Below, in pieces: positions 2,612-37,072 of a stretch of 38,871 bases of DNA. The DNA comes from Ignavibacteriota bacterium. GTDB lineage: Bacteria; Bacteroidota; Ignavibacteria; Kapaibacteriales; UBA2268. The stretch lies in contig JAGXGG010000022.1 in assembly GCA_024636855.1 (NCBI GenBank), positions 1 through 38,871 on the forward strand, read 5' to 3'. The translations under genes and the position numbers were made by a program. The notes below the pieces were generated by a model. That model saw only the letters and a list, made by a program, of their open reading frames with translations. It was not told where the DNA came from and searched no databases. Numbering within the stretch: the stretch's first letter is position 1; each line of letters begins with the position of its first letter.

Positions 2612-5600
2612 ATGAAATTATTTAAGTATCTACTAATATTAATTATAAGTGTTTCAACTGCTTCATCTCAAGTTTGGTTAGAGCCTTTCCTAGACAGAGA
2701 TAGTGTTAAGTTATCAGAAATACAAGTGGTTGCAGAAGCATACTTTGAAACAATTGATATTTCACAAAAAGGTAGTGGGTTCAAACAATACAAGAGATTC
2801 GAGCAATTCTGGAAAGATAGACTAATGCCAGATGGTACTTTTCCTGATGCTGGATTATTACTAAGAGAAAAGTTAAAATTCAATCAATCTATAAATAATA
2901 AGAACAATAAGGTACAAGCTAGTGATTCGTGGCAAGTTTTAGGTCCATTTGAGTCTAATGGTGGTTACGGAGGTTTGGCGAGAGTTAATTGTGTACGTAA
3001 GAACCCACATAATGGAGCAATATGGGCTGGTTTACCCGCTGGAGGCATTTGGGTAAGTACCAATGAGGGTACAACTTGGAGTACAAACACTGATAATGAG
3101 GATGTAATAACTGCATTGGGTATAACTTCAATTGCTTTCCACCCTACTAACTCTAGTTTAGTATATGCAGCATCAGGAGATGGAGATGGAACAAATACTT
3201 ATAGCTTAGGAGTTCTAAAGTCAACAGACGGAGGTAGCAATTGGAAAACTACAGGATTAAGTTGGAATGTAACTCAATACAGAACAATAAGTAAATTGCT
3301 TATTAACCCAACAAGTCCAGACATTCTTTATACGGCTGGTTCTAATGGAATATACAAATCTACAGATGCAGGTAATACTTGGGATCAATTAAAAACTGGA
3401 AACTTTAAAGATATGGAGTTCAAACCTGGTACACCAAATACAATTTATGCCTCTGGAACCGAATTATGGAGAAGTACTGATGCAGGCGCAAACTGGACAC
3501 AATTGACTAATGGATTTCCGACAAGTGGTATTAGACGAATCGCTTTAGCAGTAAGTGTCAATAATGCAAATGCTCTCTATGCTCTTGTAGGTAATTCTAG
3601 TGGTAATAATTTGAAAGGTGTTTATCTGTCAACAAATAGTGGTGATAGTTTTACTGAGATTGCTGATAATAGTCCTAATATGATGGGATATGCTAAAGCA
3701 GGTGATGATACCAAAGGTCAAGTATGGTATGACCTCTGTATAGAAGCAGATCAAGATGATTGGGAAAGTGTTATTGTTGGAGGTGTAAATCTTTGGCGAA
3801 CTACAGATAAAGGAGCAAACTGGGAAATTTCTTCAATGTGGAGTGGGAATCATAATGATGTAACTACTGTCCATGCTGACCAACATGATTTATGGTATGA
3901 TAACACTAATAATATAATGTATGTTGGAAATGACGGTGGAGTTTATAAATCGAGTGATTTTGGTGACAATTGGGACTGGATAGGTAGTGGTATATTAGGT
4001 ACTCAATTCTATAGATTTGGTATTTCTCAATTAGACTCATCAGTATATATAGGAGGTACACAGGATAATGGAACAAAAGTACATAAATCAAATGGAACAT
4101 GGAGAGACGCTATTGGAGGAGATGGTTTTGAAAGTCTTGTTGATAATGAAGATAAAAATACAATGTACGGCAGTCTTTATTATGGTGCATTTTTCAAATC
4201 AACTAACAGTGGGAATAATTTCAAAAGATTAAATGATTTAGATAATAATAATGAATATGATGAAATAACTGAGAGTGGCGCTTGGAGTACTCCATTTATT
4301 CAGAACCCAAGTAATAGTAATACAATACTATTAGGGATGAATAATGTTTGGATTTCAAAAGATAAAGGAGATCATTTCACAAAGATCTCAAATTTTGGCT
4401 TTGGTAACAATAAACTTGTGTCTTTAGCTATGTCTGAATCAGATTCAAATTATATTTATGCTTCTTTTAGTTCGAAACTTTACAGAACCACCAACTATGG
4501 TACTAGTTGGACAGAAATGACTCGTCCGGGTAACTCTGGTATTAGTTATATATTCGTGGATGATGAAGATAGTGATAAATTATGGGCTACTAATAGTGGC
4601 TATTCAGCAAGTAATAAAGTTTTCGAATCAACTGATGGAGGGACTACATGGACTAATTTGACCAAAAACCTTCCTAATGTACCTGCATTAACTATAGTTA
4701 AACAAAAAGATTCAGATGATAGGTTATGGATAGGTAATGATATAGGCGTATATTATATAGACGATAATTTAACAGATTGGGTTGCTTATAATACAGATTT
4801 GCCTAATGTGATAGTAACGGAACTTGAAATAAATTATACTCATAATCAGTTATATGCAGCAACTTATGGAAGAGGAATTTGGAAAGCAGATATACCCTCT
4901 ACCCTGTCAGTCCCTAGTATAATTGAACCTTTGGCTAATTCTTTTGGTAATGCTACTACGAATTTATTAATAGATTGGACTGATGTACCAGAAGCAACTG
5001 AATATGAGATACAAGTATCTACAGATTTAAATTTCTCTACAACTATTGCTATAGATACAGTTACCGTTTCTAGATATTTTTTAAATAATTTAAGTAATTT
5101 TACTAATTATTATGCTAAAATTAGAGCAAAAAGTAAATATTCAATCAGTAATTGGACTCAATCTCAAAAATTTACAACTATAGTTGGGAAAGTATCATTG
5201 ATTAGTCCAACGAATAACTCAATTGCAAAGGATACTGCTGACAATCTTAGTTGGTCAGTAGTTCAAGGTAAAACAGAATATCAAGTTCAGATTGCAAACG
5301 ATGAAAATTTTAATAATCTAGTTGTTGATCAAAATATAACGGCAGAACAATTTAATTATAATTCATTATCACATTTTACATATTATTGGTGGAAAGTAAG
5401 AGCAAAAGATCCTAGTAATATTTATGGAGATTGGTCATTTGTAAGGAAATATCAAACAAAAGTAAATAAGCCAGATTTAATATCACCTGCAAATTCAACA
5501 ACAGATTTAGCATTCACTCAGAACCTAGATTGGAGTGAAGTTACTGGTGCTGATAAATACATTATCCAGCTATCTGACAAATCAGACTTCAGTAACCTAA

Positions 5601-26609: not shown

Positions 26610-26696
26610 CGGAAAGGGAGGGATTCGAACCCTCGGTACCCTTGCGAGCACACACGCTTTCCAAGCGTGCCAGTTAAACCACTCCTGCACCTTTCC
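26610..26696 (-). tRNA. tRNA-Ser (anticodon GGA)
   Basis: On the minus strand a 7-base acceptor stem GGAAAGG/CCTTTCC (26690-26696 with 26611-26617) carries discriminator G (26610). The anticodon stem CACGC/GCGTG encloses loop TTGGAAA with anticodon GGA (26660-26662). A long variable arm and the T-arm GGTTCGAATCC follow, as expected for a class II serine tRNA of 87 bases. The 3' CCA is not encoded. The gene lies between gatA and the LD-carboxypeptidase gene, opposite in strand to both. Confidence 0.95.
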
Positions 26697-32796: not shown

Positions 32797-34041
32797 ATGA
32801 ATGTACATGAGTATCAGGCAAAAGAGCTTCTAAAACAGTACGGTGTCCCTGTATTGGAAAATAGAGTTATCTTCAAGCCAGAAGACGCTGAACAAGCAGC
32901 AAAGGAATTTGTTGAAAAGGGAAGCAAAGTAGTAGTATTAAAATCGCAAGTGCATGCAGGCGGTAGAGGAAAAGGAAAAGTACGTAACATAAATACTGAT
33001 GAAATCATACAGATTGATGGTAAAGATGTTCACGGTGTTAATGTATTATTTGGTGATAATTTACCTGCAAAAGCTAAAGCATTCGCTCAAGCAACTCTTG
33101 GCAATAAACTAGTGACAATCCAAACTGGTGAAGCTGGATCTATCGTTAATAGAATGATGCTAGAAGATGGCGCTTCTATTGACAAGGAATTTTACATTAG
33201 TATCCTTTTAGATAGAGCTACTAGCAAAAACATTATAATGGCATCTACTGAAGGTGGTGTCGAGATTGAAGAAGTTGCAGAGCACTCTCCTGAAAAAATA
33301 TTAAAAGAAATAATTGATCCTACTATCGGATTCCAAGGTTACCAAGCTCGTAGATTAGCTTTTGGTCTTGGTCTTAGTGGTGCGGGTTTCAAAAACTTCG
33401 TTAAATTCATATCTAACCTAATCAAAGCCTATGATGCTTTAGATTGCTCTATGTTAGAGATTAACCCATTAGTGGTTACTACTGACGAGCAAATCATAGC
33501 ATTGGACGCAAAGGTTGATTTCGATGACAACGCTCTTTACAGACACCCTAGCATCGCCGCATTGCGTGATGAGTCTGAAGAAGCTCCATTAGAAGTTGAA
33601 GCATCCAAATATGACCTTAATTACATCAAATTAGACGGTAACGTTGGCTGTATGGTTAACGGTGCAGGTCTTGCGATGGCAACTATGGATATGATAAAGC
33701 TTTCTGGTGGCGAGCCTGCCAACTTCCTTGATGTGGGTGGTGGAGCAAACGTCGAAAGAATTGCAAACGCATTCCGTATCATGATGAGTGATAAGAATGT
33801 TGAAGCCGTTCTTATCAATATCTTCGGTGGTATTGTTCGTTGCGATAGAGTAGCGAATGGTATTATCCAAGCTTTGGAGACAGTTGAAGTGAACTTACCT
33901 CTTATCGTTAGACTAGATGGTACTAATGCTGAACTAGCAGCTGATATTCTTGACAAATCTGACCTAAAATTTATCGTAGCTAAGACTTTTAACGATGCTG
34001 CGGAAAAGGTTGCTTCTGTAGTTAAGACTTTAAAAGTATAA
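32797..34041 (+). CDS. sucC: Succinate--CoA ligase (ADP-forming) subunit beta
   Basis: The 414-residue beta subunit makes succinate and ATP (or GTP) from succinyl-CoA in the citric acid cycle. The ATP-grasp domain starts MNVHEYQAKELLKQYGVPV and has QVHAGGRGKGKV (51-62). LEINPLVVT is near 221-229. The C-terminal ligase domain has GCMVNGAGLAMATMDMIK and the GGIVRCDRVA loop near 343. It is slightly longer than the E. coli protein. Its codons are visibly richer in C and G at third positions than the neighbours', as expected of a highly expressed gene. It has its own promoter and terminator; the alpha-subunit gene sucD is not adjacent. Confidence 0.96.
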   Translation: MNVHEYQAKELLKQYGVPVLENRVIFKPEDAEQAAKEFVEKGSKVVVLKSQVHAGGRGKGKVRNINTDEIIQIDGKDVHGVNVLFGDNLPAKAKAFAQATLGNKLVTIQTGEAGSIVNRMMLEDGASIDKEFYISILLDRATSKNIIMASTEGGVEIEEVAEHSPEKILKEIIDPTIGFQGYQARRLAFGLGLSGAGFKNFVKFISNLIKAYDALDCSMLEINPLVVTTDEQIIALDAKVDFDDNALYRHPSIAALRDESEEAPLEVEASKYDLNYIKLDGNVGCMVNGAGLAMATMDMIKLSGGEPANFLDVGGGANVERIANAFRIMMSDKNVEAVLINIFGGIVRCDRVANGIIQALETVEVNLPLIVRLDGTNAELAADILDKSDLKFIVAKTFNDAAEKVASVVKTLKV

Positions 34042-34096: not shown

Positions 34097-34112
34097 GTTT
34101 TCTGGTCTTCCC

Positions 34113-34175
34113 TATTCGCCCACTCGCCGAGGGTTTCCGCTCCCTAGCCAACCATTTCCGCTAACTAGTTAACGG
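34113..34175. repeat. Three-unit 21-bp-period degenerate repeat
   Basis: Three consecutive units start at 34113, 34134 and 34155, exactly 21 bases apart. They share the core TATTCGCC / TTTCCGCT / TTTCCGCT at the unit start, then an xxCT(A/C)G step (CACTCG, CCCTAG, AACTAG). The last unit contains the palindrome AACTAGTT. The block is much more G+C-rich than its surroundings and lies between the sucC terminator and the end of the lipoprotein gene. ATTTCCGCTAACTAG here (34154-34168) closely matches ATTTTCGCCAACTAG at 34867-34881 on the other side of that gene. Confidence 0.6.
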
Positions 34176-34210
34176 ATTTTGTTTCAAAGTAAAATGTAAG
34201 TGTCCTTTAT

Positions 34211-34723
34211 CTACTCAAAGGGATTCTCATTACTACTAACTATGACAATTGGCATACAGTATAAAATTTCATCAACATTCATCAATGTTAAAAGATATGC
34301 TCCACTCTCATAACCCATCAATTCAAACTCTACTTGTACATTTGTACTATTATTCAATCTTTTTTCCAATGTTGAAAAAGAATGTGATTCAGGTTGAATA
34401 AAGTCTGAAATATACCTCATCTCTAAATCTTTTAATAATTCTCCCCCTATTTTAGCCTTTTCTAACTTTAATTTATAGTAAACTGGATTAAATAAATTAA
34501 AAGTAACTTTATCACCTTTGAATAAAATATTAGGATAACCGATTATATCATAATCCAAAACACCTTCACAAGGAGTTTCTACTTTATTCGAAGAACCTAA
34601 TGTATCACCCAATTTACCTTCTTTATCGATAATCACCATTCCCTCTATTAATGGAATTTCTTCACTACAACCACAACTCCAAACTGCCACTAGGCATAGT
34701 ACTACTAATATATATTTCTTCAT
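34211..34723 (-). CDS. Small lipoprotein, function unknown
   Basis: The 170-residue product has a hydrophobic signal (residues 4-16) ending Val-Trp-Ser-Cys17-Gly-Cys19-Ser-Glu-Glu. Either Cys could be lipidated; Cys17 fits the lipobox spacing and Cys19 the start of the acidic mature region. The rest is a small, probably beta-rich domain with a phrase like GDKVTFNLFNPVYYKLKL (about 70-87) and no family that I recognise. It is a single gene, convergent with sucC, and is flanked on both sides by related 21-bp-period repeat arrays. Base composition is like the rest of the window. Confidence 0.62.
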   Translation of the reverse strand: MKKYILVVLCLVAVWSCGCSEEIPLIEGMVIIDKEGKLGDTLGSSNKVETPCEGVLDYDIIGYPNILFKGDKVTFNLFNPVYYKLKLEKAKIGGELLKDLEMRYISDFIQPESHSFSTLEKRLNNSTNVQVEFELMGYESGAYLLTLMNVDEILYCMPIVIVSSNENPFE

Positions 34724-35320
34724 TTCTTCCCCTATTTAATAATTATAATTTGTTAAAAATACATAACTATTTATAAAATTCAAACTATTTATCTTTGTTA
34801 TTCTCAATTAATTATAAGACAATTTCACTTTATACGCTTAAAATCTAATTTATTCACTAGTCGAATATTTTCGCCAACTAGAATACTTATATCGGTGGCG
34901 TAAGGGGTCAAAAGAATGGCGTAAGACCCTAAGAAGATGGCGAGGAGGCTTCAAAGAATGGCGAGATATAGTAAGAAGACGACGAGGAGGAGAAGGAAAG
35001 TGGCGAGATGTCTTGTGAATATAGTTTGAATCGGTATTTTGTCATTTGTTCCTCTTTTATTGAAATTAGTATTTATTAGCAAATTAACAATTATTCAAAG
35101 ATTATGAAATTTTATTGGATAATTAAAGCTATATATTGATAAATAGGTCCAAATATAGTTTATCTATATGGTTTTGTTTAGGTTATAGTTGCCGAATATT
35201 GCATTTTTGAGTCTTATTATGGATTTAGTTATGAACTTCACACTATATTAACTGACAACTTATAATAAGCTAACACCGAAAGTGAAATTTTGTATATATG
35301 AAAATATCAAGAAGTGATAA
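34724..35320. other. Gene-free intergenic region upstream of two divergent genes
   Basis: This 597-base stretch separates the lipoprotein gene (-) from the OlsF-like gene (+). I find no credible protein gene, tRNA or terminator. It holds AT-rich flanks, where both promoters must lie, and the 21-bp-period array at 34846-35013. No clear TTG-N19/20-TAnnTTTG promoter is visible in front of either gene, so their promoters may need another sigma factor. The last 300 bases (35014-35320) show nothing further that I can name. Confidence 0.5.
34846..35013. repeat. 21-bp-period degenerate tandem array (about eight units, two orientations)
   Basis: GGCG (or its variant GACG) recurs at 34897, 34918, 34939, 34960, 34981 and 35002, exactly 21 bases apart each time. 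Cores include AAGAATGGCGTAAG, AAGAAGATGGCGAGGAGG, AAGAATGGCGAGAT, AAGAAGACGACGAGGAGG and AAAGTGGCGAGAT. The units starting 34930 and 34972 agree at 17 of 21 positions, others at 12-13. To the left, two units with CACTAG (34855) and AACTAG (34876), also 21 bases apart, carry the core in the opposite sense (TTCGCCAACTAG). The right part is strongly purine-rich on the plus strand. Confidence 0.65.
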
Positions 35321-37072
35321 ATGAAGTATGTAACGTTAAAGAATCTGATAGAAAGCGTTTCGCTAGATAACAAATTGACTCGATTTGTTCTCAGGTATAG
35401 GCTGTTGGAGAATATTGTTGATAAATTTCTCAGTTTCAAGGAGGTGAATAAGTTCTTGCATAGGACGGAGAATTGGTCAGGTATAGAGTTTATCGAGGAA
35501 TTGTTCGATTATATCGATTTTTCGTTTACGACTACTCATAAAGATAAGCAGAAAATCCCTTCCGAGGGTCGGGTTATAGTTGTGGCTAATCATCCATTGG
35601 GTGGCTTGGATGCGTTATCACTTATTTGTAGTATCTATGAGGTTAGACAGGACATAAAGATTCTTGCCAATGAGATGTTAACTAATATCGAGCAATTGAA
35701 TGAGTTTATAATTCCTGTGGATATTTTTTCTAAGAATCAGAAAAAGAGTTCCATGGTAGCCATTCACAATGCTATGATAGAGGAAAAGGTCTTGATTATT
35801 TTCCCAGCGGGTGAAGTGTCTAGGTTAAAGTCTGGGAAGGTGATGGATGGAGATTGGTCGAAGAGCACGATAAGTATCGCTAAGAAGTATGGGGCTCCTA
35901 TACTACCAGTTTTCATCAAAGCACAGAACTCATTCTTATTCTATGTTATTTCTAAGCTGAATAAAAAGCTTTCTACGGCATTATTGCCAAGGGAAATATT
36001 CAAAAAGGCAGGCGATCGAATAAGCATAAAGATAGGAGATCTAATCCCAAGTATGGCTATAAGTAACTACATGAAAGATAAGCGATTGATTAAGCTCTTA
36101 AAAAAGCATGTTTATAGGATTGCTAAAGATAAGAAAGGTATTTTTATGACTGAGAGGAACGTAGTTCATCCCCAATCACAAAAATCAATTAAGATAGAAC
36201 TGAATATGTCTAGAATACTATTGAATATAGATAATAAGACGAAGTTATATATTACTAAGTATAATATAAGTAAGAATGTTATAAATGAAATCTCTAGACT
36301 AAGAGAGTTGACATATAGAAAAGTTGGAGAAGGAACTGGGAATAAGTCGGATAAGGATAACTATGACAAGATATGTGACCACTTGATACTCTGGAACAAT
36401 GAGAATATAGAGATAATGGGTTCTTATAGATTGGGTGACCTTTCCGAGATAATAGCAAATCATGGCTATGAGAGCATTTATAATCATCAGTTATACGAAT
36501 TCAGCCCAGAGGTCGAGAAAGTGTTAAATAAGACATTAGAATTGGGTAGAAGTTTTATACAGCAGAAATACTGGCGAACGAATGCTTTGGATTATTTGTG
36601 GCAAGGAATAGGCGCTTATGTATCAGAAAGACCCCATTTAAAGTATATGTTTGGAGCTGTAAGTCTAAGTGATTCTTACTCAGAACTAGCAAAGAACCTA
36701 ATAGTGTTCTACTATCAAAAGTGGTATTCTGACCCTGATAATAGCTATCTGAAAGCTAAATTCCCTTATGAAATACCTAAATTGTCTTATCGTACAGTTT
36801 TAACTACACTGAATGGAGAAGATTATAAAGCAGACTTTATTAATCTCAAAAAGTCTTTGAGTGAATTGGGTTATTCAGTTCCAGTATTATTAAGAAAATA
36901 TACTGATATATGTGAATATGGTGGAGTGAAGTTCCTAGGTTTTGGTATTGATGAATCATTTAACAACTCAATAGACTGTGTTGTCTTATTAGACTTAGAA
37001 AAAATTAAACCCGAATTCAAGGATAGATACTTCAGGAATAAAAAACTCATCAACAATGTTGAACTTGTCTAG
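35321..37072 (+). CDS. olsF: OlsF-like bifunctional acyltransferase (ornithine lipid synthesis)
   Basis: The 583-residue protein joins two acyltransferase domains. The N-terminal part (about 60-280) is PlsC/OlsA-like, with ANHPLGGLD (His91, Asp97) and IFPAGEVSR (160-168). The C-terminal part (about 290-500) is an OlsB/autoinducer-synthase-like GNAT, with RLRELTYRKVGEGTG, HLILWNNE and IMGSYRLG. This order matches OlsF, which N-acylates ornithine and then O-acylates lyso-ornithine lipid. The last 80 residues form an extra segment without a motif I know. Substrate specificity (ornithine versus another amino acid) cannot be read directly. The sensor kinase gene follows after 2 bases, so the two are co-transcribed. 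Confidence 0.8.
   Translation: MKYVTLKNLIESVSLDNKLTRFVLRYRLLENIVDKFLSFKEVNKFLHRTENWSGIEFIEELFDYIDFSFTTTHKDKQKIPSEGRVIVVANHPLGGLDALSLICSIYEVRQDIKILANEMLTNIEQLNEFIIPVDIFSKNQKKSSMVAIHNAMIEEKVLIIFPAGEVSRLKSGKVMDGDWSKSTISIAKKYGAPILPVFIKAQNSFLFYVISKLNKKLSTALLPREIFKKAGDRISIKIGDLIPSMAISNYMKDKRLIKLLKKHVYRIAKDKKGIFMTERNVVHPQSQKSIKIELNMSRILLNIDNKTKLYITKYNISKNVINEISRLRELTYRKVGEGTGNKSDKDNYDKICDHLILWNNENIEIMGSYRLGDLSEIIANHGYESIYNHQLYEFSPEVEKVLNKTLELGRSFIQQKYWRTNALDYLWQGIGAYVSERPHLKYMFGAVSLSDSYSELAKNLIVFYYQKWYSDPDNSYLKAKFPYEIPKLSYRTVLTTLNGEDYKADFINLKKSLSELGYSVPVLLRKYTDICEYGGVKFLGFGIDESFNNSIDCVVLLDLEKIKPEFKDRYFRNKKLINNVELV

What the first reader, a model, noticed from the sequence alone, without database searches (positions are those of the whole stretch)
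34113..35013. Two 21-bp-phased degenerate repeat arrays flank a lipoprotein gene
GGCG cores fall at exact 21-base steps from 34897 to 35002 (six units), two further units with CACTAG/AACTAG stand to the left, and three more units with TTCGCC/TTCCGC cores lie at 34113-34175 beyond the other end of the lipoprotein gene. The two blocks share ATTT(C/T)CGC(C/T)AACTAG. The period is conserved more strictly than the bases, and units 34930 and 34972 match better (17/21) than adjacent ones, suggesting a 42-base higher-order unit. 21 bases is two DNA turns, so every core faces the same side of the helix, as expected of a multi-site protein-binding platform. It could also be a decayed tandem-repeat element. 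No feature type I know explains it.
Basis: seen in the sequence. Interest (0 to 1): 0.6.

Follow-up and report, generated by a model that had tools for sequence, protein, structure and literature searches.

The report
Two-turn repeat arrays beside genes
The window holds real but worn DNA repeats that recur exactly every 21 bases, two turns of the helix; they resemble a wider class of 21-base arrays that in related bacteria usually sit just upstream of one uncharacterised gene family.

Summary
In detail: both blocks show a 21/42-base period that none of 1000 dinucleotide shuffles reaches. The same units recur in this genome and in the three same-genus genomes searched; 59 of 59 neighbouring distances of 15-27 bases are exactly 21. 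At the window's locus, sisters G003 and G001 keep an 8-unit array with no gene or other genes in place of the lipoprotein; G002 lacks the whole block.

In G003 one array stands 5' of a 318-aa gene. That family gave no match in G000 but is multicopy in some relatives. In three locus sets 75 of 87 family genes have a tandem array of period 21 or a multiple upstream (14 of 21 in the most distant genomes), against 9 of 267 control genes under a stricter distance rule. Unit sequence varies between loci; the period does not. Codon periodicity is absent. A 10.5-base rhythm of conservation was strong in one set (z 8.7) and weak in the next (z 1.6).

Best reading: orphan members of this class, a helically phased DNA platform 5' of genes; binding and function are inferred. 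A neutral minisatellite is the main rival.

The parts
34106..34168 (-). Array A: three 21-base units (CTAGTTAGCGGAAATGGTTGG, CTAGGGAGCGGAAACCCTCGG, CGAGTGGGCGAATAGGGAAGA), 3' of the lipoprotein gene and just after the sucC terminator
34211..34723 (-). 170-aa lipoprotein-like gene (named from its sequence; no Pfam match) between the two arrays; not present at this place in G003, other genes there in G001
34840..34881 (-). Two inverted units left of array B (CTAGTTGGCGAAAATATTCGA, CTAGTGAATAAATTAGATTTT)
34891..35016 (+). Array B: six 21-base units with GGCG (one GACG) core; G003 and G001 have 8-unit arrays at the orthologous place
35017..35061 (+). Tail of the array (GAATATAGTTTGAATCGGTATTTTGTCATTTG...), similar at the 3' end of eight arrays in four genomes
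35321..37072 (+). Acyltransferase plus GNAT gene (Pfam Acyltransf_2, Acetyltransf_5), to which array B points; orthologs in G001 and G003; no match in G002, which lacks the arrays at this place too
32797..34041 (+). sucC (ATP-grasp_2 and Ligase_CoA domains), fixed left flank of the block

Best explanation
In relatives that carry it, the partner gene encodes an acidic, all-helical protein, often with fibronectin-III domains, and each gene copy has its own unit sequence. In the window's genus three of four genomes gave no match to the partner family, and the array plus its tail precedes lipoprotein genes or the acyltransferase gene. Shown: recurrence, exact period, orientation toward the downstream gene, similar tail, turnover of units, no codon signature. 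Inferred: the period is kept because something touches or bends the DNA from one face, so that the array works as a promoter-proximal DNA platform for the downstream gene; in this genus the GGCG block would be the contact.
For: Exact step: 59 of 59 unphased hit distances between 15 and 27 are 21, of which 27 of 27 lie in four loci not used to train the matrix; the other distances up to 60 are one of 13 and three of 42. Neighbouring units of three orthologous arrays differ by 192 substitutions with no phase-breaking indel, while the noncoding flank G000-G001 has 5 indels for 85 substitutions. Core columns 6-9 change between neighbours in 0.07, 0.20, 0 and 0 of 45 steps, the other columns in 0.22 to 0.73. 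Eight arrays in four genomes point at the downstream gene with a similar tail. Class: 26 of 28, 24 of 31 and 25 of 28 family genes with a 21n array in up to 900, 900 and 700 bp upstream; by the stricter rule of the control 48 of 59 in the first two sets against 9 of 267 ordinary genes; best lag 21 or 42 in 52 of 59 family upstreams against 60 of 758 control genes. No 3-base rhythm in column conservation (z -1.5 and -2.4). A 10.5-base rhythm at z 8.7 in 33 arrays.
Against: No binding protein, transcript or phenotype was tested. The 10.5-base rhythm was only z 1.6 (p 0.07) in the 16 validation arrays, and the genus arrays carry one conserved block per 21 bases, not two. In the most distant genomes of set 2 only 14 of 21 loci have the array. 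G000-G003 flanks also show 57 substitutions and no indel, so that pair proves little. Three of four genus arrays lie within the shuffles for predicted curvature, one at the 91st percentile. Units arise by duplication, which can keep a period without selection. The partner protein is acidic (median pI 4.87 in 61), unlike a usual DNA binder. Some 21n arrays lie between convergent genes or away from the family, where a promoter role is unlikely.
Confidence: 0.4

Rival explanations
1. Neutral minisatellite: the unit length comes from the duplication process and is inherited; the window arrays are decaying relics, perhaps spread inside a MITE-like carrier as BrickBuilt is in Porphyromonas gingivalis.
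For: Units are duplicated and turn over; similar tail at eight arrays, like BrickBuilt's leader and tail (PMC4596501, abstract and passages); G002 lacks the whole block; window units are too worn for TRF; block-like clustering of conserved columns could come from shared duplication history.
Against: One period recurs with differing unit sequences at many loci and in many genera, so it was not set once; strong tie to one gene family.
Confidence: 0.3
2. Joints of gene cassettes: in this genus the CTAG-type units are left at, or used for, recombination that swaps small genes in and out between arrays.
For: The place between sucC and the acyltransferase holds a lipoprotein gene (G000), no gene (G003), a GNAT gene next to sucC and a 256-aa gene next to the array on two contigs of G001, and nothing at all in G002; for 22 small genes of the genus the first unit starts between -24 and 42 bases from the stop, and 21 of 22 offsets are multiples of 3; runs of lipoprotein genes are separated by the same units.
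Against: No recombinase is tied to the sites; many of the 22 genes are paralogs, so the frame count is far from 22 independent cases; no cassette pattern was looked for in other genera.
Confidence: 0.15
3. Remnants of a coding heptapeptide repeat (21 bases = 7 codons; heptads could also give a 10.5-base rhythm).
For: A G006 array reads FPNGVKT repeats in a 91-aa ORF; similar units lie inside a 551-aa ORF at C100; one antisense frame of the genus arrays has 2 stops against 11.0 +- 4.0 expected; antisense open frames of family arrays 34 of 41 against 28.5 +- 2.4; in 18 arrays with a unique open sense frame the third codon position is slightly less conserved (0.797 against 0.837).
Against: No 3-base rhythm of conservation; no codon-position effect in genus arrays (0.39, 0.45, 0.43); sense open frames 30 of 41 against 26.8 +- 2.6 expected; L207, L210 and L136 have stops in all sense frames; lag 10 exceeds lag 9.
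Confidence: 0.1
4. RNA element: a transcribed leader whose repeated units fold or bind a protein as RNA.
For: The L009 array plus leader folds better than shuffles (z -2.3).
Against: Window array z -0.3, G003 array z 0.7; no Rfam match in the window besides a tRNA.
Confidence: 0.05

Closest known systems
BrickBuilt MITE / minisatellite of Porphyromonas gingivalis (PMC4596501; abstract and passages seen)
   Same: Intergenic tandem direct repeats without spacers, variable unit number, imperfect units, conserved flanking segments; promoter activity reported for it in E. coli
   Different: Unit 23 nt, one shared (imperfect) unit in 19 copies, small inverted-repeat ends; here 21 nt, units that differ between loci outside the genus, and a partner gene family. 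Inverted ends were not looked for here
vlhA promoters of Mycoplasma gallisepticum with (GAA)n upstream (PMC6258824; abstract seen)
   Same: Multigene family whose promoters carry a tandem repeat upstream
   Different: Trinucleotide of one sequence; here 21-mers of many sequences, and no evidence of on/off switching
Iterons of plasmid origins (recalled, no call)
   Same: Direct repeats of about two helical turns, bound in phase by a Rep protein
   Different: Partner not recognised as a Rep; one member's helical part finds nothing in 72,556 plasmid or 50,697 phage records at E 1e-5
PQLLE family NF052641 (NCBIfam) for the partner gene
   Same: Subthreshold matches along the helical domain
   Different: Best 38 bits against a cut-off of 80

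Membership tests
BrickBuilt MITE | 23-nt unit | tested here: not met
   59 of 59 distances of 15-27 bases are 21 in the genus arrays
BrickBuilt MITE | conserved flanks on the repeats (leader, tail) | tested here: met
   similar tail at eight arrays; a leader was not tested
BrickBuilt MITE | terminal inverted repeats | not tested
   no dedicated search was made
CRISPR array | near-identical repeats separated by unique spacers | tested here: not met
   neighbouring units differ at 6 to 13 of 21 positions in three arrays
Plasmid iterons | adjacent replication initiator on a replicon | tested here: inconclusive
   none of nine family proteins scanned reaches a Pfam cut-off; one query finds no plasmid or phage homolog; the helical domain finds no PDB match at E 0.001
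Coding heptapeptide repeat | codon-position pattern of conservation | tested here: not met
   3-base harmonic z -1.5 and -2.4; genus arrays flat by codon position
Known RNA family | match at Rfam gathering score | tested here: not met
   in the window only a tRNA at 26610-26696
NCBIfam PQLLE family (partner gene) | score over the 80-bit cut-off | tested here: not met
   0 of 61 genomes over the cut-off; best 38 bits

The most novel reading that the evidence does not exclude
A two-part locus spread over the phylum: a multicopy gene for an acidic helical (often FN3-bearing) protein and, just upstream, its own tandem array whose sequence is free but whose period is fixed at 21 bases. A sequence-free, period-locked element would mean that the helix pitch itself, not a motif, is selected, or that arrays are written by an unknown 21-base duplication machine; orphan arrays such as the window's are its traces.
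Probability: 0.4. Interest if true: 0.85.

Novelty: new variant of a known kind. Interest (0 to 1): 0.62.

Why it matters
If the association stands, a large unnamed gene family has a constant non-coding partner whose only fixed property is its length in helix turns. That would be a natural test case for selection on DNA geometry rather than on sequence, and a handle on the function of a family with 42 matches at about 32 places in one genome (G012). It may also explain some small repetitive ORFs of the FPNGVKT kind (one seen).

Tried and rejected
Known RNA families. RNA folding as a general property: one of three arrays. Static curvature: 21-base repeats of the consensus units are predicted curved (mean 2.26 against 1.04-1.35 at periods 18-20 and 22-24), shuffled units almost as much (2.04; mean percentile of the real units 0.61), and the genus arrays lie at percentiles 0.24, 0.91, 0.75 and 0.59 of their shuffles; the wedge parameters were recalled, not fetched. 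Partner gene on plasmids or phages: none with one query. Fold of the partner: listed PDB matches of the full model are FN3-sized, viral ones FN3-sized or with rmsd above about 18; the helical part alone finds nothing at E 0.001. A motif shared by the arrays of 64 family loci: CGGA in 19 against 6.1 expected, GAAA 30 against 13.9, GGCG only 9 against 4.7, so at most a weak common core. Model R1 over a phylum sample: only G000 and G006 at E 0.005 (2 of 148 genomes, stricter filters). In one search, 12 of 24 genomes had a hit at E 1; I took the unclustered hits outside the genus and G006 as chance. Literature: searches listed no paper that I recognised as describing 21-base arrays beside this family; only listings were seen, apart from PMC4596501 (abstract, passages), PMC6258824 (abstract) and PMC5771137 (passages). 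Most subscription journals and preprints are not held. The array rule looks at 21n periods only, so repeats the test over all lags 10-60.

Rows dropped before counts: L144 and L147 (upstream cut by the contig end); L234 and L310 (same) and L237, L309 (no family ORF). Five loci (L236, L241, L245, L247, L250) repeat loci already used and were not given. Some counted arrays have only about two copies by TRF (e.g. L134, L155, L167, L169, L174, L195, L206, L209, L240); over sets 1 and 2, one search found 44 of 59 loci with at least four units, three of them out of 21-base register (L145, L146, L206). For the column tests only arrays with at least 5 units and mean neighbour identity 0.5-0.88 were used (33 of 44; 16).

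Full report
OBSERVATION. The main block runs 34891-35016 on the plus strand with cores exactly 21 apart (five GGCG, one GACG). Two units at 34840-34881 and three at 34106-34168 lie on the minus strand. Autocorrelation at lags 21 and 42 exceeds all 1000 dinucleotide shuffles in both blocks; lag 42 is stronger than lag 21 in the main block. TRF at score 30 does not list the arrays.

SAME UNITS ELSEWHERE IN THIS GENOME. A pattern of three GGCG cores 21 apart, with up to two mismatches, gives 44 matches in the genome against 20 for the reversed control; 4 are exact, two at C33 and two at the window. Most of the one- and two-mismatch matches elsewhere look like ordinary sequence. Reading the places shows an array at C33:15820-15966 (L009), a shorter one at C33:14940-15006, one at C17:2784-2844, two to three units between tandem lipoprotein genes on C17 and C33, and similar units inside a 551-aa ORF at C100. 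A weight matrix from 40 units has its information at GGCG (columns 6-9).

SAME GENUS. Model R1, built from unit pairs of G000, G001 and G003, was run over 24 genomes including the window's own: 12 had a hit at E 1; the hits cluster in the four genus members and in G006 of the same family. In nine loci of the four genus genomes, 59 of 59 successive hit distances in 15-27 are 21; the other distances up to 60 are one of 13 and three of 42. The matrix was trained on units from five of these loci; in the other four, 27 of 27 are 21. A similar tail follows the array at eight loci of four genomes, before the acyltransferase (sucC locus, three genomes), small lipoproteins (four loci) or the 318-aa gene (G003 C34).

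THE SITE IN SISTER SPECIES. G003 has sucC, an 8-unit array and the acyltransferase, with no lipoprotein gene. G001 has the 8-unit array and acyltransferase with a 256-aa gene on the other side of the array (no Pfam match), and on another contig sucC followed by array-like sequence and a GNAT gene. G002 has sucC next to a pyridine-nucleotide-disulphide oxidoreductase gene (thioredoxin-reductase-like); arrays and acyltransferase are missing there, the junction lying between the two terminators. Array B of G000 aligns to those of G003 and G001 with one 21-base gap, G003 to G001 with none. Between G000 and G003 the 281-base flank also has no indel (57 substitutions), so that pair says little; G000-G001 has 5 indels for 85 substitutions.

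THE WIDER CLASS. The 318-aa protein beside the G003 C34 array has matches in 7 of 40 related genomes, none in G000, G001 or G002; G012 has 42 matches at about 32 places, G009 14 matches. Three sets of loci, chosen by protein similarity only, were read for arrays. Set 1: 26 of 28 with a TRF array of period 21, 42, 63 or 84 in up to 900 bp upstream. Set 2: 24 of 31; 10 of 10 from G012 and G009, 14 of 21 from eleven further genomes. Set 3, mostly more loci of the same genomes: 25 of 28 in 700 bp. Control: 9 of 267 ordinary genes in 389 kb of eight genomes (G000 and seven with the family) have such an array ending within 420 bp of the start; by that rule sets 1 and 2 give 48 of 59 (Fisher p 2e-37). 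Over all lags 10-60 the best lag is 21 or 42 in 52 of 59 family upstreams against 60 of 758 control genes from 20 genomes. In ten genomes with the family, 25 of 47 tandem repeats found in 729 kb are 21n, 15 of these from G012 alone; in ten genomes without it, 1 of 7 in 420 kb. Three family genomes sampled there (G003, G016, G107) showed no tandem repeat. Several 21n arrays stand away from family genes, some between convergent genes, so arrays without the partner are not peculiar to the window.

WHAT IS CONSERVED. Unit sequences differ between loci, with at most a weak shared core (CGGA in 19 of 64 against 6.1 expected). In 33 diverged arrays column conservation has a 10.5-base harmonic at z 8.7 (0 of 3000 permutations) and no 3-base harmonic (z -1.5); leaving out G012 or G009 keeps z above 7. 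In 16 new arrays the 10.5-base harmonic is only z 1.6 (p 0.07), the 21-base one z 5.4, the 3-base one z -2.4. So the lack of a codon rhythm is replicated; the helical rhythm within the unit is not firmly replicated. Around the conservation peak T is favoured on the 5' side and A on the 3' side in the first set (36 arrays). Genus arrays have one block, GGCG, and no codon-position effect; the matrix used to find them centres on that block.

THE PARTNER. AlphaFold models: helices to about residue 214, then FN3 (mean pLDDT 90.9, pTM 0.55), and the helical domain in a copy without FN3 (89.4, pTM 0.69). Median pI of the first 215 residues is 4.87 in 61 proteins, range 4.5-9.1, so most are unlikely direct binders of the array. 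None of nine members scanned reaches a Pfam cut-off. No homolog of one member in plasmids or phages.

MECHANISM. Shown: an exact two-turn step, duplication and turnover of units, position 5' of genes with a similar tail, tie to a gene family. Inferred: contact or bending from one face, and control of the downstream gene. The neutral-minisatellite rival stays serious because duplication alone can keep a period; what it does not explain is why differing unit sequences in many genera share one period beside one family.

KNOWN THINGS. BrickBuilt (PMC4596501, abstract and passages) and vlhA repeats (PMC6258824, abstract) are the nearest described cases that I saw; neither fits in unit length, sequence sharing or partner. 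The verdict is a new variant of a known kind (intergenic tandem arrays near genes), with a categorically new reading not excluded. The literature searches cover open-licence papers only.

Noticed in passing
L122 4436, 5024, 5654, 6326; L011; L009; window 34168: CTAG-type units follow the stop codon of 22 small genes; the first offset is a multiple of 3 in 21 of 22 cases. Genes include GNAT, coiled-coil-like and lipoprotein genes. Paralogy inflates the count, but it hints that the units once lay in frame.
   Followed up: partly
L011 1-2540 and L009 6081-7520: Runs of tandem lipoprotein genes with a near-identical signal-peptide stretch, diverged mature parts and nearly identical spacers carrying one to three 21-base units.
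   Followed up: partly
L070 about 2985-3075, L043 1100-1200, L071 160-270, L009 4937-4963: Repeats of the GAGATTGCC...CTCGCAATGACA and CACTGAGCGGAGTCGAAGTG kind sit inside or beside the arrays; that such repeats are common in many bacteria is recalled.
   Followed up: no
L219 18236-18890: A protein (YIPKRD...) that does not match the family profile has a 9.6-copy 21-base array 69 bp upstream, so the arrays may serve more than one family.
   Followed up: no
L125 3158-3433: A 91-aa ORF of FPNGVKT repeats is the array itself; small repetitive ORFs of this sort in annotations may be such arrays.
   Followed up: partly
L127 2131-2256, L132 1666-1749, L141 2579-2747: Three G006 arrays share a GGCGAAGGAACG core and are less worn than those of the window's genus.
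   Followed up: no
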